Positions 6,815 to 20,199 of a DNA stretch of 25,032 nucleotides are shown here, one piece after another. The position numbers and the translations under genes are program-made. Numbering within the stretch: position 1 is the first letter of the stretch; each line of letters starts with the position of its first letter. Below the pieces are notes generated by a model. The model did not search any database, was not told the DNA's origin, and worked only from the letters and a program-made list of their open reading frames with translations. This DNA comes from a virus. The stretch lies in the IMG/VR virus record IMGVR_UViG_3300030109_005511, positions 1 through 25,032 of that record; one strand, given 5' to 3'.

Positions 6815-7098
6815 ATATTAAAGATATAGCCATTCCCTGCGGCACGATATTGTTTGCGGCTGGCGCTGCTTTTGCTTCGTTTGAATCAGCTGCTCAAGAC
6901 ACAGAAGAGCTCGAACGTAGAGTTACAATCATTGAGTCTAAAGAGGGCAAGCAGGAAGTCGTTGATCTTAAGATTGAGGGTGTAGAAAAGCGCCTTGATA
7001 AGATGGAAGAACTCATGGGTAAAATGCTCGAGGTTCAACAGCAGCAAGCTATCAACCAAGCCAAGATTTGCGCTGCAACAAACGCGAGATGTAACTGA
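6811..7098 (+). CDS. Membrane-anchored coiled-coil protein, lysis-cluster candidate
   Basis: The 95-residue product has an N-terminal hydrophobic helix (residues 5-24), then a long coiled coil (about 30-84) with E/K/L heptads, and two Cys near the end (87, 94). This layout resembles phage i-spanin-like and holin-associated proteins. It overlaps both neighbours by a few bases and immediately precedes the candidate endolysin. The 18768-19076 product has the same architecture in a second place. Confidence 0.55.
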   Translation: MNIKDIAIPCGTILFAAGAAFASFESAAQDTEELERRVTIIESKEGKQEVVDLKIEGVEKRLDKMEELMGKMLEVQQQQAINQAKICAATNARCN

Positions 7099-7673
7099 TG
7101 AGACCACTTATTCTTGATTACGTTGACTCTCTTGGGCACACTGTATTCGAGAATGGTCAGTACAACCTAAACATCATTGGTATTCGCAGTAAGGATCATC
7201 AGGCTAACAGCTTTGATGATCGCATCTGTGTGGTGTTTAGAGATGAGAATGGGTGGATAGCCCGCACTTGGGAATGCACTACAGAGCCCGGACGATACTG
7301 GCTCGAAAACCCCAGCAACGTCAACGGAACTGCTATTCTTGTACCTGGGCAGTATCGATCTGTTTGGAAGATCGACAAGCACCAAGGACGATATGATGCG
7401 CTCTGCCAGAGGAACGGCACGGTCAAAGTTTATCGGGACGACAATAAAGACGACGTTATTGATCTTGATGTGGACTCAATTACTGAAGGGATGTATGGCA
7501 TCAATATCCACAAGGCGGGGTCAGCCTCGACGCAAGTAAACAAGTGGTCCGCCGGATGTCAAGTTTTCAGCCACAGCGCTGACTTTGAAGAGTTCATGAG
7601 CATTTGCTACGCAGCAAAAGAGAAGTGGGGTAACAGCTTTACGTACACGCTGATTGATGAACCAGATTTCTAA
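7098..7673 (+). CDS. Putative YkuD-like cell-wall enzyme, candidate endolysin
   Basis: The 191-residue product contains GMYGINIHKAG followed by WSAGCQVF: His138, then 12 residues, then Ser151-Ala-Gly-Cys154. L,D-transpeptidase (YkuD) catalytic sites have a His some residues before an S/T-H-G-C motif, with Cys as the nucleophile. Here the second His is replaced by Ala and the spacing is slightly short. There is no signal peptide. Its place among small membrane proteins suggests it is the peptidoglycan-cutting enzyme of the lysis cluster, with export via a holin. The fold assignment is by motif only. A virion-associated wall-processing enzyme is the alternative. Confidence 0.6.
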   Translation: MRPLILDYVDSLGHTVFENGQYNLNIIGIRSKDHQANSFDDRICVVFRDENGWIARTWECTTEPGRYWLENPSNVNGTAILVPGQYRSVWKIDKHQGRYDALCQRNGTVKVYRDDNKDDVIDLDVDSITEGMYGINIHKAGSASTQVNKWSAGCQVFSHSADFEEFMSICYAAKEKWGNSFTYTLIDEPDF

Positions 7674-8706: not shown

Positions 8707-9000
8707 TCATATAAGTTTAAGAATCAAACCCAATAGAGACACAACTAATGCAGAAAAAGAAAAGACCAGGGCTCGTCTACTGGCACGCCAACTGCGCTCA
8801 ACACCATGTCGCTTCAATTCAAAGTCGAAGTGATCTTCAGGAGTCCAATCAGGAATCTTCTGGAGATACTCCGAGCAAGCCCGGTGCTCCCAAAGAGCGT
8901 CCTCTGGAATCTGGAGCCCCCGGTACATTAAACAGGTCCCTGCCTGTTTGCTAGCTCCATCGTAGGATTTGTAGAATCCACATCGCCCACATCTGGCCAT
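8707..9000 (-). CDS. Small zinc-ribbon protein with C-terminal membrane anchor
   Basis: I start at the ATG ending at 9000 (MARCGRCGFY). A longer frame would begin inside the terminator hairpin. The 97-residue product has CGRC (Cys4, Cys7), Cys23 and Cys42 in the CxxC...GTC...AC-x-x-Y arrangement seen in many small phage proteins. A hydrophobic helix at about 77-96 could anchor it. Its stop abuts the opposing late operon's stop. It lies just downstream of an intrinsic terminator on the same strand. Its only -10-like sequence (TACACT at 9006-9011) would give an almost leaderless message. Function unknown. Confidence 0.55.
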   Translation of the reverse strand: MARCGRCGFYKSYDGASKQAGTCLMYRGLQIPEDALWEHRACSEYLQKIPDWTPEDHFDFELKRHGVERSWRASRRALVFSFSALVVSLLGLILKLI

Positions 9001-9013
9001 GCGATAGTGTAAC

Positions 9014-9050
9014 AAAAAAACCCCACTCAAGTTGTGACACTCAAGTGGGG
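9014..9050 (-). terminator. Rho-independent terminator of the DUF2589 cassette
   Basis: On the - strand a CCCCACT...AGTGGGG stem (9021-9027 with 9044-9050, 16-base loop) is followed by seven T residues. It ends transcripts coming from the 9242-10529 genes. It lies only 14 bases before the start of the 8707-9000 gene on the same strand. Confidence 0.8.
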
Positions 9051-9056
9051 CCAGGT

Positions 9057-9111
9057 TTTAATCCACAGGATTAAATTAATCTCAGCCTATCTGAGATTAA
9101 AATGTTTAAAC
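9057..9111. repeat. Cluster of three perfect palindromes
   Basis: Three perfect palindromes lie in 55 bases. TTTAATCC-ACA-GGATTAAA spans 9057-9075. TTAATCTCAG-CCTAT-CTGAGATTAA spans 9076-9100 with a 10-base-pair stem. GTTTAAAC spans 9104-9111. A further GGATTAA copy lies at 9126-9132, so that heptamer occurs three times counting its inverse. The segment encodes no protein I can support. Candidates are a regulatory RNA, a protein-binding island or a replication-origin-like site; the sequence does not decide between them. Confidence 0.7.
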
Positions 9112-9155
9112 CACCACCACAAAATGGATTAAGACCAAATGAGTCTATGCCTGTC

Positions 9156-9228
9156 GCCCCCCCCACCCGGTAGGAATCGCCCATGCTCATGCCCCGAGAA
9201 TGGGACAAGCGATATGGGTGGGGGGGGC
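9156..9228. other. Long imperfect hairpin closed by a 13-base-pair poly-C/poly-G stem
   Basis: GCCCCCCCCACCC (9156-9168) is perfectly complementary to GGGTGGGGGGGGC (9216-9228). Inside, ATCGC (9176-9180) pairs with GCGAT (9209-9213), and CCCAT (9180-9184) with ATGGG (9200-9204), although the two stems share one base. The whole could form a 73-base structured RNA or cruciform directly after the stop of the 9242 gene. The G-rich arm plus AGGGG at 9231-9235 could also form a G-quadruplex. There is no T-run after it on either strand, so it is not a classical terminator. Confidence 0.65.
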
Positions 9229-9241
9229 ACAGGGGACTTGA

Positions 9242-9847
9242 TTACTTCTTAGGTGGGGCGACACCTTGAGTAGGCGCAATAGCATCATTGAGCATGTCCA
9301 GAACCTTCATGAGGCCTTCTGGAGGTCCGTCATCGCGTGCAAGCACCTTAACGTCGTACTTTGCGCTGTTGTCGCTCTTACGGCTGTTCTCGCTGTGGTT
9401 AGCCACAGAGCCATGCACAGTGACCTCGCAAGAGAAGAGACCAGCGTTGTATTTAGCCTTAGCTGTAAGGTCAGCCTTACTGTCTGATGTGTTCTTACTT
9501 GACGTAGAGGACTTAACCTCCATGGTAAAGCGAACCTCTGCTTCCTTAACTGACAAAGATGGAGTGTTGATGATGGCAAGCAGTGGAACCTGGAGGTCCA
9601 CCTTCTGCATCGTTGTGTTTCCGGCAGCATCTTGGACTGGTTTATTGAAGCTAAAGTCTACGGTGCGGGCAGACATGATCTTGCCTGTAGCATCCGTATC
9701 AAGTCCGACATCTTGAATGAAATCGCTTGATGCCTTTGCAAGCAGTGTCTGAGCGTTACACGCAGCCTTAAGTGGGCCACCAATGAGTTGCTCCATTGGA
9801 AGGCCACCAAACTGTGATGACATTTGTACGAGGCCGGAATCTGCCAT
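9242..9847 (-). CDS. DUF2589-like protein
   Basis: The 201-residue product shows features I associate with the DUF2589 family: IGGPLKAACNAQTLLAKASSDFI (residues 22-44), a V-D-F-x-F strand (63-67), and the signature L-x-VPLLAIINTPSLSVKEAEVRF (about 85-107). A Ser/Thr/Lys/Asp-rich middle and a C-terminal PPEGLMKVLDML segment follow. The family's function is unknown to me; members occur mainly in bacterial chromosomes. AGGAGA lies five bases before the ATG. It is the downstream partner of a second, shorter protein with the same core and C-terminal motif. Family assignment is from memory of the motif, not a search. Confidence 0.62.
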   Translation of the reverse strand: MADSGLVQMSSQFGGLPMEQLIGGPLKAACNAQTLLAKASSDFIQDVGLDTDATGKIMSARTVDFSFNKPVQDAAGNTTMQKVDLQVPLLAIINTPSLSVKEAEVRFTMEVKSSTSSKNTSDSKADLTAKAKYNAGLFSCEVTVHGSVANHSENSRKSDNSAKYDVKVLARDDGPPEGLMKVLDMLNDAIAPTQGVAPPKK

Positions 9848-9856
9848 GATGTTCTC

Positions 9857-10351
9857 CTACGGAAGCAGTTTGATTAGCTGATCGTCGATTCTTGCATAAC
9901 CTTCTGGAGGCTCACTGCCCTTGAAGATCAGCTTGAGTTTAGCAGCATTGCTTTCTTTTTTAAACCACGATGGCGCATTCGAGCATGGCCGAACCATCAG
10001 TTTGCCTTTCTTCTTATCCGCAGTGAGGCCAGATATCTCCACAGACATTTCGACCTCAAGCGTATCCACCCGAAGGCTTTGACCAGTCGTGAGGGACTGG
10101 AGCGGTACTGGAACTCTTTTTTGTACCAGTACTCCATCTTCCCATGTTGGGATTTCCATGACGACCATACGAGGTGCATATATGTGTCTTCCGTCGTCAT
10201 CTGTAATGGGTTGACCCTTTTCATCGACCTTCAACTCCCAAAATTCTTGATTGGTAATTGAGTCGAGCTCATGACGCTCGGCAATATCAGTCGCAGCAAT
10301 GACTGCAGACTGAATTGAATGAACAATGTCGTCTAATGAGTGTTCAGCCAT
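9857..10351 (-). CDS. Second DUF2589-like protein, diverged paralogue of the 9242 gene
   Basis: The 164-residue product is acidic at the N-terminus. It contains VPVPLQSLTTGQSLRVDTLEVEMSVEI (about 80-106), which lines up with VPLLAIINTPSLSVKEAEVRFTMEV of its neighbour. It also ends with a matching PPEGYARIDDQLIKLLP segment. It lacks the GGPL...AQ helix of the longer protein. The ATG overlaps the end of the upstream FmdB-like gene by eight bases with little ribosome-site sequence, so coupled translation is likely. The two probably act together, perhaps as a hetero-oligomer; function unknown. Confidence 0.58.
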   Translation of the reverse strand: MAEHSLDDIVHSIQSAVIAATDIAERHELDSITNQEFWELKVDEKGQPITDDDGRHIYAPRMVVMEIPTWEDGVLVQKRVPVPLQSLTTGQSLRVDTLEVEMSVEISGLTADKKKGKLMVRPCSNAPSWFKKESNAAKLKLIFKGSEPPEGYARIDDQLIKLLP

Positions 10352-10529
10352 TCTTTAAACCGTAGTTATCCTTCGCCCAGCCGTCTCCTTTGAGCGAAAA
10401 GCTAGTCAAAGAGGGCTTTTTGTTCATCTGAGTCTGACATTTCTCGCAATTTGGCCATTTGTCTCCGAATTTCTGTAGAACTTCGCAGATTCGACCGCAG
10501 GAATTGCATTCGAACACATAAATAGGCAT
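10344..10529 (-). CDS. FmdB-type zinc ribbon protein
   Basis: I choose the ATG ending at 10529 (MPIYVFEC), not the TTG one codon upstream. The 61-residue product has the FmdB-like pattern: M-P-I-Y-x-F/Y-E-C-x-x-C-G (Cys8, Cys11), E-x-L-Q, a second C-x-x-C (Cys28, Cys31) and a C-terminal FSLKGDGWAKDNYG tail. Such small zinc ribbons are widespread in bacteria and phages, often as presumed regulators. It heads the three-gene cassette with the DUF2589-like pair and lies 20 bases downstream of an intrinsic terminator on its own strand. Confidence 0.8.
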   Translation of the reverse strand: MPIYVFECNSCGRICEVLQKFGDKWPNCEKCQTQMNKKPSLTSFSLKGDGWAKDNYGLKNG

Positions 10530-10628: not shown

Positions 10629-11198
10629 CTATTGAGGCGTCTGCTTCATCAGATCCTTCAGCTCAGAATCGTTTGAACTCGCACCTTGGGCTTGGATTGC
10701 CTCAATAAGTTCTTTGTTCGACCCAGACACGTCTACCTTCACATCGACGAGAGGTATGCCGTTTTGATATTGCAAGTCTTGCTCATTCTTTGTGTCAACA
10801 AATTTTACTGCAAGCATGATTGCGTCATCGCCACCTCTATTTGGTCGAACATCAGACTCAAAGTCCATGATGACCCAATCACCGTTAGGCTGACGGAGCC
10901 GAATGTGCTTAAGCATTGACTCAATCGTCTTGCCAATCTGTTCACGGTAGATTTCTTCATCTACAAAGTTGAGAACACCAGCAAGTCGCCATTCCACCTT
11001 CTCAAGCTTGGTTCGATAAGAAGCAAACTCTTTCCGTGCCTTCTTGTCGATTACCCTTTTTGACATTTCGTCTTTCAGAATATCCATAAGAATATTTGTC
11101 TGAATGATAAATTTCTTCTCGTTCGTAGGTCCAGCCTTTTCCGAGATCATCATCTTGTATGGTGAGAGATTATTAGCGGCTTGATCAAGCAAAGACAT
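10629..11198 (-). CDS. Unknown protein of the recombination operon; possible alternate-frame acidic tail
   Basis: The 189-residue product is a soluble alpha/beta protein with a basic helical middle (KRVIDKKARKEFASYRTKLEKVEWRL). Its two halves show no motif I know. It follows recT by eight bases and precedes the terminator, so it is probably an accessory factor of DNA recombination or repair. Oddity: in the -1 frame, 10600-10662 is open and would encode a tail ending DEADASIDEIPSDFEG, like the acidic ends of SSB-type proteins; the SSB here ends NDNEIPF. The annotated frame ends earlier, at 10629. A one-base indel or a frameshift near 10638-10662 would join them. Confidence 0.62.
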   Translation of the reverse strand: MSLLDQAANNLSPYKMMISEKAGPTNEKKFIIQTNILMDILKDEMSKRVIDKKARKEFASYRTKLEKVEWRLAGVLNFVDEEIYREQIGKTIESMLKHIRLRQPNGDWVIMDFESDVRPNRGGDDAIMLAVKFVDTKNEQDLQYQNGIPLVDVKVDVSGSNKELIEAIQAQGASSNDSELKDLMKQTPQ

Positions 11199-11206
11199 GA
11201 GTGCTC

Positions 11207-12091
11207 CTATGCAGTGAAGTCTTCTTCGGGTTCAGGCAGGTCGTTTTCTTTTGCCCTTTCAACTAAATCTTTAACCTTGGTCTTTCTTTTTGACTTTGGT
11301 TTAGGTTCAGCCTCTTGTACATCAATAACATTGTTTGGCTGTTGTGTGTTGTCCTGTTCAACAACATTGGTTTCGATTGCATCGATGCCTATTGAGTTGC
11401 CAAAGTCAGATTGAATGTCGTGCTGAAGAACAGCTGTAGTCTTTGGTGTAAGTGGCAAATATTTACAGATGCGACGAATGACCGTCTTTCGCCACATCTC
11501 TTCAGTGTGCTGAGACCATGGGCCAGAATCTGGACTACGAGATGACTTACGAATCTTATTGATTTGATCCTTACGCATGACCTCTACTTGACGTTGGCCA
11601 TCCTTAAAGAAACACACGGCATAAGCAAGCAGTAGGTTGCCAGGATTATCGTGACACTTCTTGTGGCGAAGAACCTCTCCGCTCTCGAGATCAAATGAGT
11701 GTTCAAACTCATCATTATCGTACACTACCTCGGCCTTGAAGTGCGCCACTTCTCCAGATCGTTTCACCAAGTCCATTAGGCCGGTGTACTCAATCCAAAG
11801 CTCTGCGTTGTAGCACTTACTTTTCTTGTCCCACATTGGAACGAGAGACGCGCGATGAAGGACCCCACCAGCAACCAAGTCGAGCTCACAGGCCTTAGCA
11901 AGAGCCATGTAAACAGACGTTGGGCTGCAGTTTACCAGTCGTTCGTTTTTGACGGCCTCAAACATTGCTACACGAATGATTCGATCTACGTCAGTTCCTT
12001 GTGGCGCGATCTTAATCAGACTGTTTTTCTTGCTTTCGAGGTACTCGTTTAACTGAGTGACCTTATCTCTAGTGCTTAGTGCGGTGCTCAT
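11207..12091 (-). CDS. recT: RecT-family single-strand annealing protein
   Basis: The 294-residue product has the RecT layout. It begins with an N-terminal helical region, then ALAKACELDLVAGG (residues 63-76), LWIEYTGLMDLVKRSG (98-113), and the diagnostic GPWSQHTEEMWRKTVIRRICKYLPLTP (190-216). The C-terminus is a charged tail ending PEPEEDFTA. RecT proteins bind single-stranded DNA ends and anneal them to homologous strands after 5'-to-3' resection. The ATG overlaps the exonuclease gene's stop by four bases (ATGA), the usual coupling of such pairs. The acidic tail may serve protein contacts. Confidence 0.92.
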   Translation of the reverse strand: MSTALSTRDKVTQLNEYLESKKNSLIKIAPQGTDVDRIIRVAMFEAVKNERLVNCSPTSVYMALAKACELDLVAGGVLHRASLVPMWDKKSKCYNAELWIEYTGLMDLVKRSGEVAHFKAEVVYDNDEFEHSFDLESGEVLRHKKCHDNPGNLLLAYAVCFFKDGQRQVEVMRKDQINKIRKSSRSPDSGPWSQHTEEMWRKTVIRRICKYLPLTPKTTAVLQHDIQSDFGNSIGIDAIETNVVEQDNTQQPNNVIDVQEAEPKPKSKRKTKVKDLVERAKENDLPEPEEDFTA

Positions 12092-13044
12092 GTTGCCTCT
12101 TTGATTCGAAGTATCCTACTTCCTGGTTGTTCTATTAAGTACTTTTCGTAGAGCTTGGGCTCTTTGTCTCTAAACTTTTGTTTATCGAACACCCTTCTCG
12201 GCTTGCTCATCTTCCAAGTTGCAACCCCTTGTATTCCTGAGTCTTCACCGATCTTTGCCCTTAACAGGTTCTCCATCTCTTTCTTTTCTGCGTCGAGCAC
12301 CTTTAATTCTTTTCGAACCTTCACGATTTTCTCGTGTAGATCTTTTTCAGCTACCGTTGCAACTCTTGGTGGATCGTCTTTGACCCTTGGGTTCATCTGA
12401 GAAAGCGCTTTCTTACATGCGTCGGTCGCGTCAACGTCTGGTGGTACTTCATCTTCAACGTGCTTGTTCCACCATGTTTCTGCTACATCTAATATAGATT
12501 TGCCTAAATCTTTGTCTCGCTCTAATCGATATACCCGAAAGTCATCGAGGCTAAACAATGTAGCGATATCCCAGTACGGGGCATCGAAAATCTCCATGTA
12601 GACTCTCATCTGAATCTCTACATCAAGTGGCACGTCCGTTGTTCCAGACTCTCCCCACCCAAATCGATAGCGCCTTGTTTTGGCATCCATTCCAAACCGA
12701 ACCCCGTTTTGTTCAATTAGTCGATCTGGCGTGCCGAAAATGCGTGGCCGAGATGGATGCCATGTCAGTCCCTCTTCCCAGAGCGTACACCCTTCCCCTA
12801 GATGGAGCTCATAAAACTCACAAACATACTTTTCCATTACTCGACCACGCATCAAAATCGCATCATCATAGTCTTCTGTTTCGTACAAGCCTGTTTTCTC
12901 AGACCAGAGTTTGAATAGACTATTTTCAAATGAACCAAGCTTTTCAGATTGTTCAGCACCAGCCATCATAATCGCGGCTATATCTGTGCCGCCCAAGCCT
13001 TTACGGCGCTCTTGCAGCCAAGCCTCACGCTCTTCCTGATTCAT
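12088..13044 (-). CDS. YqaJ/lambda-exo-type 5'-3' exonuclease
   Basis: I start at the ATG ending at 13044, which has GAGAGGAA upstream. A longer frame to 13119 would run through the promoter. The 318-residue product shows the YqaJ-type recombinase pattern: GLGGTDIAAI (residues 16-25), RGRVMEKYVCEFYE (66-79), GTPDRLI (104-110) with a probable metal-binding Asp, MDAKTR (119-124) and a Q145-containing helix. A coiled-coil extension completes the C-terminus. This nuclease would chew double-stranded ends to give single strands for RecT, which follows in a four-base overlap. It is the first gene of the operon. Confidence 0.88.
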   Translation of the reverse strand: MNQEEREAWLQERRKGLGGTDIAAIMMAGAEQSEKLGSFENSLFKLWSEKTGLYETEDYDDAILMRGRVMEKYVCEFYELHLGEGCTLWEEGLTWHPSRPRIFGTPDRLIEQNGVRFGMDAKTRRYRFGWGESGTTDVPLDVEIQMRVYMEIFDAPYWDIATLFSLDDFRVYRLERDKDLGKSILDVAETWWNKHVEDEVPPDVDATDACKKALSQMNPRVKDDPPRVATVAEKDLHEKIVKVRKELKVLDAEKKEMENLLRAKIGEDSGIQGVATWKMSKPRRVFDKQKFRDKEPKLYEKYLIEQPGSRILRIKEAT

Positions 13045-13062
13045 AGGTTCCTCTCTTCGGTG

Positions 13063-13091
13063 AGTGTACTGTTTAACTGAAAGTGTGTCAA
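13063..13091 (-). promoter_or_regulatory. Promoter of the recombination operon
   Basis: On the - strand TTGACA (13086-13091) is followed after exactly 17 bases by TACACT (13063-13068), about 20 bases before the exonuclease start. This is a strong sigma-70-like match. The -10 overlaps an AGTGTAC motif that recurs at the opposing promoter, suggesting repressor control. Confidence 0.75.
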
Positions 13092-13108
13092 GGAGCCACA
13101 CCCTAAGA

Positions 13109-13137
13109 TGGACAAACACAAACTATTTCGATAGTGT
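13109..13137 (+). promoter_or_regulatory. Promoter of the repressor gene
   Basis: On the + strand TGGACA (13109-13114) and TAGTGT (13132-13137) are 17 bases apart, giving transcription that starts about 15 bases before the repressor ATG at 13158. The -10 is embedded in CGATAGTGTACCA (13129-13141). CACACCC (13097-13103) and GGGTGTG (13147-13153) form a wider inverted repeat around this promoter. Confidence 0.6.
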
Positions 13138-19437: not shown

Positions 19438-19453
19438 ATTTCTCCTTCAAAAG

Positions 19454-19526
19454 CTGGGGCGGCTGGACTTGAACCAACAACCTCCTGGGTAACAACCAGA
19501 CGTTCTGCCAATTGAACTACACCCCA
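19454..19526 (-). tRNA. tRNA-Asn (GUU anticodon)
   Basis: The 73-base sequence folds as a complete cloverleaf. The acceptor TGGGGTG pairs with CGCCCCA, followed by discriminator G. The D arm is GTTC...GAAC, and the anticodon stem TCTGG/CCAGG encloses the loop TTGTTAC (anticodon GTT). The T arm is GTTGG-TTCAAGT-CCAGC. No CCA is encoded. The first pair is U1-A72, which is typical of tRNA-Gln and is known to be used by GatCAB amidotransferase on both tRNA-Gln and tRNA-Asn. That hints at a host making Asn-tRNA indirectly. Confidence 0.93.
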
Positions 19527-19540
19527 CTCTTGTTTACTAC

Positions 19541-19933
19541 TTAGAACGGAATCTCGTTATCGTTGTAGTTTCCGCTTGGTGCTGGTCGAGATTGCTGTTG
19601 GCTCGCACCGTTTTCAGGCTTGGTCATGAACTCAACATTATTGGCTACAATCTCCGTGGCCTTGCGTTGGTTTCCTTCCTTGTCCTCGTATGAACGATAC
19701 TGAATCCGTCCCTCTACGATTACTTTTGAACCCTTGTCCAAAAACCGTTCACAGTTTTCTGCAGTCTTTCCGAAGACTACAATGCGATGCCATTCGGTAT
19801 TGTCTACCCATTCATCGCCCTTCTTGACTCGTTGGTTTGTAGCAACGCTAAAGTTGCCAACTGAGTTCCCACTGTTTGCTTTACGTACCTCTGGCTTTTG
19901 CCCGAGGTTTCCACTAATGATCACTTTATTCAT
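19541..19933 (-). CDS. ssb: Single-stranded DNA-binding protein
   Basis: The 130-residue product is a typical bacterial/phage SSB: MNKVIISGNLGQKPEVR start, NFSVATNQR, EWHRIVVFGKTAENC, KGSKVIVEGRIQYRSYEDKEG and a variable Gln/Ser/Pro-rich linker. It ends in the acidic tip NDNEIPF, which recruits partner proteins. It overlaps the upstream zinc-ribbon gene by four bases. Length and domain order are normal for the family. Confidence 0.95.
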   Translation of the reverse strand: MNKVIISGNLGQKPEVRKANSGNSVGNFSVATNQRVKKGDEWVDNTEWHRIVVFGKTAENCERFLDKGSKVIVEGRIQYRSYEDKEGNQRKATEIVANNVEFMTKPENGASQQQSRPAPSGNYNDNEIPF

Positions 19934-20199
19934 GATCGCTCCTTGTTGTTAAGTATTGTCAAATCTGGTGCATGACCCTCTGCAGACTCACGCATCATCT
20001 CTCTCACATCGTCGAGTAAGAGCTCAACCGTCATGGCCGTCCGTCCACACTCTCTGCATCTTCTGTTTCTCGCTATGAAGTCGTGAGTGTACCAAGCCAC
20101 AGTCTTCTTGGCCTTGTTCACTTCCGCACCCTTCCCAGGCTTTTGTGGGCTCCGTGTTGCAATCACTTGGGTGTCACCACCGCATTTACTACAGTTCAT
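19930..20199 (-). CDS. NrdR-like zinc ribbon protein
   Basis: The 89-residue product begins M-N-C-x-x-C-G (Cys3, Cys6), followed by a V-x-x-T-R turn, a basic insert and RNRRCRECGRTAMTVEL (Cys48, Cys51). This matches the N-terminal zinc ribbon of NrdR, the ribonucleotide reductase repressor. It lacks the ATP-cone domain that NrdR carries after it, so it cannot be a full NrdR. It lies between helicase and ssb genes in overlapping reading frames, suggesting a DNA-metabolism role. Confidence 0.75.
   Translation of the reverse strand: MNCSKCGGDTQVIATRSPQKPGKGAEVNKAKKTVAWYTHDFIARNRRCRECGRTAMTVELLLDDVREMMRESAEGHAPDLTILNNKERS

What the first reader, a model, noticed from the sequence alone, without database searches (positions are those of the whole stretch)
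9242..10529. Terminator-bounded cassette: FmdB zinc ribbon plus two DUF2589-like paralogues
Three coupled genes lie between two intrinsic terminators on the same strand. The two longer products share a V-P-L-x-x-(L/I)-x-x-x-x-S-L-x-V core and a C-terminal PPEG-x5-D-x-L motif, so they look like diverged tandem paralogues. As far as I know DUF2589 has no assigned function and is mainly chromosomal; carriage by a phage suggests a host-takeover, defence or counter-defence cargo acting as a two-subunit unit.
Basis: partly seen in the sequence, partly recalled or inferred. Interest (0 to 1): 0.65.

Follow-up and report, generated by a model that had tools for sequence, protein, structure and literature searches.

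The report
Phage-borne two-subunit DUF2589 gene pair
A marine virus of bacteria carries two tightly conserved sister genes of unknown function (DUF2589) that in bacteria nearly always travel together, usually beside interchangeable cell-wall-cutting or other toxic enzymes, so the pair looks like a two-part helper of such enzymes that phages have captured.

Summary
Both longer products hit Pfam DUF2589 above its cut-off (148 and 57 bits against 23); the first gene is an FmdB-type zinc ribbon; both terminators are real hairpins. In 79 of 79 related phage loci the two genes (B, then A) are co-directional, in 64 at most 30 nt apart, with dN/dS about 0.05. The zinc ribbon abuts B in only 17. In bacteria DUF2589 has two classes: 81 of 85 loci carry a co-directional A-type and B-type gene, 70 a third ~90 aa gene (C0), and 69 a toxic enzyme within 3 kb, mostly without a signal peptide: lysozymes, amidases, nucleases, a phospholipase, a protease. 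In 12 genomes 14 of 16 GH108 genes lie beside DUF2589. The phage pair is cargo in a variable slot at the end of the early RecE/RecT operon; the slot is empty in two relatives. C0 is missing, but the phage's own lysin belongs to the family that partners A in Bacteroidota. Best reading: a two-subunit partner of toxic enzymes, captured by phages. That A and B form a complex, carry an enzyme or aid lysis is inferred; the structure models are poor. No known defence family is matched.

The parts
9242..9847 (-). DUF2589-A (201 aa): N-terminal helix LPMxxLIGGPLxAAC..., beta core, extra Ser/Thr/Lys-rich beta hairpin, R-x-S-D-x-S-A-K-Y motif, C-terminal PPEG helix
   Evidence: Pfam PF11655 148 bits; A-class HMM 267 bits; motif in 84 of 87 bacterial A and 0 of 83 B; dN/dS 0.049
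9857..10351 (-). DUF2589-B (164 aa): partner paralogue without the hairpin and motif
   Evidence: Pfam PF11655 56.8 bits; B-class HMM 101 bits against A-class 27.5; dN/dS 0.049
10344..10529 (-). FmdB-family zinc ribbon (61 aa), overlaps B by 8 nt; loosely associated
   Evidence: TIGR02605 45.9 bits against 31.3; PF09723 40.3 against 34.4; abuts B in 17 of 79 phage loci
10556..10585 (-). intrinsic terminator upstream of the cassette
   Evidence: 13-pair stem followed by T6
9019..9052 (-). intrinsic terminator downstream of the cassette
   Evidence: 14-pair stem followed by T7
9132..9237 (-). conserved structured RNA at the operon end (3' UTR hairpin), shared with relatives that lack the pair
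   Evidence: shuffle z -6.1 for 9010-9250; 6 of 24 pairs with changes on both sides; covariance model 93.9 bits; core in 61 viral contigs
10629..12091 (-). upstream genes of the same early operon: unknown 189 aa gene and RecT (RecE at 12088-13119)
   Evidence: Pfam RecT E 5e-36, YqaJ E 5e-10; PHROG RecE-like E 1.5e-61
7098..7673 (+). lysin of the family (C28) that adjoins DUF2589-A in Bacteroidota; convergent with the cassette
   Evidence: PHROG endolysin family phrog_33083 E 5e-17; C28 HMM E 2.7e-102 (the window's own copy was in that cluster, so see the pairwise figure); 50-56% identical to the bacterial copies, E 2e-54 to 2e-66

Best explanation
A and B are the two subunits of a conserved bacterial module whose constant core (A, B and usually a ~90 aa protein C0) accompanies interchangeable toxic enzymes that lack an export signal, mostly peptidoglycan hydrolases. 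The likeliest mechanism is that A and B form a hetero-oligomer that carries, stores or lets out such an enzyme. Marine phages have captured the A-B core as cargo at the end of their early recombination operon. There it most likely works in trans with the phage's own signal-less lysin, of the family that is A's neighbour in Bacteroidota, and so helps lysis or enzyme release. Shown: two classes, near-obligate pairing, strong purifying selection, enzyme association in bacteria, cargo slot in the phage. Inferred: physical A-B complex, carrier or pore role, and the lysin as partner in the phage.
For: Pairing: 81 of 85 bacterial loci co-directional A+B; 79 of 79 phage loci; 5 of 6 DUF2589-bearing genomes in a random sample of 199 Pseudomonadota, counting the centre. 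Enzymes: 69 of 85 loci within 3 kb, Pfam-confirmed as GH108, GH19, Muramidase, Pesticin, Phage_lysozyme, SLT, Amidase_2, WHH/Colicin-DNase, HNH, Patatin, Peptidase_C58; the same families occur 68 times among 603 genes within 3 kb and 0 times among 372 genes further out. Reverse test: 14 of 16 GH108 genes in 12 genomes lie beside DUF2589. Random sample: 3 of 5 non-centre genomes have an adjacent GH19 or amidase-like gene (by HMM or by reading the sequence). A, B, C0 and nearly all the enzymes lack a signal peptide by a crude test. A holin (phrog_2359 E 3e-12) belongs to the Luteibacter cassette. Phage: all 16 A/B-bearing records of about 35 kb or more also carry the lysin; it is convergent with A within 2 kb in 52 loci.
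Against: In the phage no toxic enzyme is co-directional with the pair, C0 is absent, and the lysin lies tens of kb away in several records. Other phages with a related lysin (46-52%) lack DUF2589. The pair sits among early recombination genes in two unrelated phage lineages, which suits an early rather than a late, lysis role. Structure models are poor (pLDDT 57 and 54), so neither a pore nor an A-B interface is shown. In Bacteroidota several sampled genomes have a single DUF2589 gene or only a fragment. 16 of the 85 loci show no enzyme nearby.
Confidence: 0.4

Rival explanations
1. Counter-defence decoy: the bacterial A/B/C0 plus enzyme modules kill or lyse infected cells, and the phage makes an enzyme-free A-B pair early to poison the host assembly.
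For: The phage pair keeps the invariant A residues under strong constraint but lacks C0 and an adjacent co-directional enzyme; it is in the early operon in two lineages; some bacterial effector types found here (patatin, HNH) are also used in known defence systems (own knowledge).
Against: No PADLOC match for A, B, C0 or neighbours; most bacterial partners are cell-wall enzymes that would be idle in the cytoplasm; only about 1-5% of sampled genomes in three phyla carry DUF2589, a small target for a gene kept by more than 100 phages.
Confidence: 0.2
2. Accessory factor of phage DNA recombination or replication: A and B act with RecE/RecT or RecA/SbcCD in the same operon.
For: RecE and RecT lie upstream on the same strand in 46 of 79 loci; in a second lineage (L339) B and A lie between SbcD-like and PD-(D/E)XK nuclease genes behind RecA.
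Against: The pair is conserved at 87-98% while RecT and RecE beside it are in many loci only 25-30% identical to the window's, so it does not follow one recombinase type; bacterial copies show no recombination neighbours among recurrent clusters.
Confidence: 0.15
3. Virion or ejected protein pair that enters the host with the DNA.
For: In some relatives (L045, L063) A is followed on the same strand by long low-complexity proteins and then a possible head gene.
Against: Those proteins match no Pfam family, and the L045 ones no PHROG family; in most loci the neighbours are early genes.
Confidence: 0.07
4. Superinfection or defence cargo protecting the infected cell against other phages.
For: Sits in a variable cargo slot with its own terminators, as such genes often do (own knowledge).
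Against: No known defence family matched; common to most of this phage group rather than variable.
Confidence: 0.1

Closest known systems
DUF2589 (Pfam PF11655)
   Same: Both products match over the curated cut-off and over nearly the full profile.
   Different: Pfam treats it as one family without function; here it splits into an A and a B class found together.
Tandem short DUF2589-related genes AF0414-AF0417 of Archaeoglobus fulgidus (PMC3949148)
   Same: Short DUF2589 genes side by side, the only mention of DUF2589 found in the held literature.
   Different: Archaeal, four genes, only noted as up-regulated on lactate; no function or enzyme partner given.
Phage lysis cassettes (endolysin, holin, spanin) and type 10 secretion (holin-endolysin export)
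   Same: Signal-less peptidoglycan hydrolases; a holin in the Luteibacter cassette; the phage pair ends next to the lysis genes in many relatives.
   Different: A and B are soluble-looking, two paralogues, and match no holin or spanin family; some partners are nucleases, lipases or proteases.
Effector modules with a constant carrier or adaptor and variable toxin (type VI secretion adaptors, polymorphic toxins)
   Same: Constant core with interchangeable antibacterial enzymes of the same kinds: muramidases, amidases, lipases, nucleases.
   Different: No secretion-system structural genes were recognised among recurrent neighbours; present in Bacillota and Actinomycetota. Comparison from own knowledge, not a membership claim.

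Membership tests
DUF2589 (PF11655) | profile match over the curated cut-off | tested here: met
   148.2 and 56.8 bits against 23
FmdB zinc ribbon (TIGR02605 / PF09723) | profile match over the curated cut-off | tested here: met
   45.9 against 31.3 and 40.3 against 34.4 bits
Bacterial DUF2589 A/B module (defined here) | co-directional A-class plus B-class gene | tested here: met
   A-class 267 bits, B-class 101 bits, adjacent on one strand
Bacterial DUF2589 A/B module (defined here) | C0 small gene beside the pair (70 of 85 bacterial loci) | tested here: not met
   no C0 HMM hit in the window or in any phage locus searched
Bacterial DUF2589 A/B module (defined here) | toxic enzyme within 3 kb, co-directional in nearly all of the 69 loci that have one | tested here: not met
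   the lysin is within 2 kb but on the opposite strand
Known anti-phage defence or counter-defence families | match to a PADLOC-DB model | tested here: not met
   no match for A, B, FmdB or bacterial neighbours
Beta-pore-forming proteins | shared fold with an inserting beta hairpin | tested here: inconclusive
   conserved alternating hairpin in A, but the model is poor and no Foldseek or VIA match is significant
Holin / spanin | PHROG family match or transmembrane segment | tested here: not met
   no PHROG match for A or B; no N-terminal hydrophobic segment in either class by a crude hydropathy test
Type VI secretion adaptor or effector carrier | binds and delivers the neighbouring enzyme | not testable with these tools
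   needs binding and secretion assays

The most novel reading that the evidence does not exclude
A, B and C0 are the structural core of an undescribed export or delivery machine that handles interchangeable toxic enzymes across bacterial phyla, and phages have captured its two-subunit core for enzyme release or to block the host's copy.
Probability: 0.25. Interest if true: 0.85.

Novelty: new variant of a known kind. Interest (0 to 1): 0.6.

Why it matters
DUF2589 has no assigned function and is mentioned in one paper of the held library. The two-class pairing and the swap of many unrelated toxic enzymes around the same pair turn it into a testable hypothesis: a carrier, pore or partner for antibacterial or lytic enzymes. 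The phage copies give a reduced two-gene form in which the core can be studied without the rest, and could show how phages take over or counter such modules.

Tried and rejected
Structure: AlphaFold2 of A alone with 50 sequences (pLDDT 57.5) and of a read-through B-A fusion with 30 paired sequences (pLDDT 54.0) were too poor to judge fold or interface. Foldseek gave no match with E below 0.2 for either against PDB; beta-pore-forming toxins and tail-tube proteins appear among the insignificant fusion matches (E 0.2-3, TM about 0.1 or less) and are not counted as evidence. No PDB sequence relative. The lysin as an obligate neighbour in phages was rejected: it can be tens of kb away. FmdB as a constant third member was rejected. 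Joint descent of pair and lysin from one bacterial cassette was not supported: phage A falls beside gammaproteobacterial A (Vibrio, Shewanella; support 94), not Bacteroidota A, where the C28 lysin partners it. A link of the 3' RNA hairpin to A itself was rejected: it also ends operons without A. In-frame TAG read-through from B to A was considered; the frame is kept, but some lineages have TAA or TGA inside the junction, so it is taken as the ribosome site overlapping the stop.

Full report
What is there. On the minus strand of a 25 kb fragment of a marine phage (close relatives reach about 74 kb) lie FmdB (10529-10344), B (10351-9857) and A (9847-9242), bounded by two intrinsic terminators. 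A and B match Pfam DUF2589 at 148 and 57 bits against a cut-off of 23; FmdB matches TIGR02605 and PF09723. PHROGs and PADLOC have no family for A or B. The operon upstream carries RecE-like and RecT genes and, further up, a VapE-type helicase and a primase. On the other strand, converging on the cassette, lie a lysin, a spanin-like gene and other small membrane-type genes.

The pair is real and constant. A was found in 153 and B in 107 stretches of IMG/VR, at 77-99% identity among the best 80 of each. In 79 loci that hold both, they are always co-directional; in 64 the gap is at most 30 nt, in 15 other small genes have been inserted between them. The commonest junction is TAGGAGAACATCATG or a near copy, with the ribosome site on B's stop. 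Median dN/dS is 0.049 for both, lower than for the lysin (0.077) and FmdB (0.21). The pair keeps 87-98% identity in loci where RecT and RecE beside it drop to 25-30%, so it is kept while the backbone changes. Isolated phages hardly have it: one unannotated 4 kb fragment from human faeces among 50,697 records.

The bacterial family has two classes. One genome scan gave 278 relatives of A; the best 80 loci and five plasmid or fragment loci were studied (one plasmid locus repeats a genome locus). Class HMMs show a co-directional A and B in 81 of 85, and the exceptions include short contigs. In the tree A is one clade (support 100) and phage A one clade within it (99), next to gammaproteobacterial A; B is fast and poorly resolved. 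A differs from B by about 50 residues that form an alternating hydrophobic and polar hairpin with a G-x-G-x-F tip and by the motif R-x-[ST]-D-x-[ST]-A-[KR]-Y (84 of 87 A, 0 of 83 B). A third paralogue class (C6) occurs in some loci. In a random draw of 199 Pseudomonadota six genomes have DUF2589 (the centre counted), five of them two adjacent genes; in Bacteroidota (10 of 198) single or partial genes are commoner; in Bacillota 2 of 199. The pair rule is therefore strong but not universal.

What it stands beside. 70 of 85 loci have a ~90 aa gene C0 without Pfam match next to the pair, and 69 have a toxic enzyme within 3 kb. Confirmed Pfam domains: Glyco_hydro_108 with PG_binding_3, Glyco_hydro_19, Muramidase, Pesticin, Phage_lysozyme, SLT, PG_binding_1, Amidase_2, WHH and Colicin-DNase, HNH, Patatin, Peptidase_C58; a weak non-specific endonuclease. 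Apart from some of the Vibrio transglycosylases they lack an N-terminal hydrophobic segment in a crude test, as do A, B and C0. The same clusters occur 68 times among 603 genes within 3 kb and 0 times among 372 genes further out; the clusters were picked because they lie near, which flatters this figure. A test less open to that choice: in 12 genomes GH108 has only 16 copies and 14 lie beside DUF2589. In five randomly drawn genomes two have a GH19-type gene beside the pair and one an amidase followed by a DUF2235-like hydrolase, the last two read by eye. Luteibacter cassettes also hold a holin, and a LuxR-type or response regulator cluster recurs near 34 loci. Many loci are from related genera, so the independent evidence is the replacement of one enzyme family by another around the same core in different phyla.

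The phage copy. The pair is cargo: in two relatives (L351, L376) the gene after RecT is followed directly by the RNA hairpin that closes the operon, where the window has terminator, FmdB, B and A in between. Those records (20.6 and 33.8 kb) hold no DUF2589, but are fragments. In a second lineage (77 and 101 kb records) B and A lie between SbcD-like and PD-(D/E)XK nuclease genes behind RecA. C0 is not found in any phage locus. The window's lysin is homologous (50-56% identity, E 2e-54 to 2e-66) to C28, the gene upstream of A in the four Flavobacteriales loci. All 16 A/B-bearing phage records of about 35 kb or more carry that lysin, in 52 loci convergent within 2 kb of A, but in others far away; since these phages are related, this co-occurrence is weak evidence.

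Mechanism. The pattern of a constant pair with interchangeable, signal-less, mostly antibacterial enzymes fits a carrier, storage or outlet role better than an inhibitor role, because one inhibitor would not fit so many unrelated enzymes. The near-obligate pairing and the hairpin that only A has fit a hetero-oligomer. In the phage the only conserved candidate partner is the lysin. These steps are inference; the AlphaFold2 models are too weak to test them, and early-operon placement in two lineages keeps the decoy and recombination rivals open. No defence family was matched.

Novelty. The held literature names DUF2589 once, for four tandem short genes of Archaeoglobus fulgidus (PMC3949148). No account of the two classes or of the enzyme association was found there; most subscription papers are not held, so absence there is not proof.

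Noticed in passing
window 9132-9237 (-); 61 viral contigs (L347-L397 and others): A conserved RNA hairpin with covariation closes the early operon in this phage family (core GGGCGATTCCYACCGGGTG; 6 of 24 pairs with both sides changed; no Rfam family). It also follows operons without A/B. Function unknown; perhaps 3'-end protection or termination at the convergent junction.
   Followed up: partly
L142 6920-7195, L143 6854-7129 and 68 other bacterial loci: C0, an 85-95 aa family ending in YHxGFxRKPxWL, without Pfam match, next to the DUF2589 pair in 70 of 85 bacterial loci.
   Followed up: partly
L177 7353-8012, L184 8011-8655 and others: C6, a third DUF2589-like paralogue class in some cassettes; the window's B scores against its HMM (30.8 bits).
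   Followed up: partly
L339 3276-10316: A 77-101 kb phage lineage with RecA, SbcC/SbcD-like, B, A, PD-(D/E)XK nuclease and a 384 aa gene that may be a sliding clamp, in one operon.
   Followed up: partly
L009, L022, L038, L069 between B and A: Different small ORFs inserted between B and A in 15 of 79 phage loci, keeping both flanking genes intact.
   Followed up: no
window 8707-9000 (-): Small gene with N-terminal CxxC motif and a C-terminal transmembrane segment beyond the terminator; present in a subset of relatives.
   Followed up: no
window 19453-19526 (-): tRNA-Asn (GTT) gene.
   Followed up: no
window 19930-20199 (-): Zinc-ribbon-type small protein with two CxxC motifs upstream of the helicase gene in the early operon.
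   Followed up: no
L181 9050-9466, L220 3475-3900: C94, a possible caspase-fold protein (HG and DACGE motifs, read by eye) behind the DUF2589 pair in Flavobacteriaceae.
   Followed up: no
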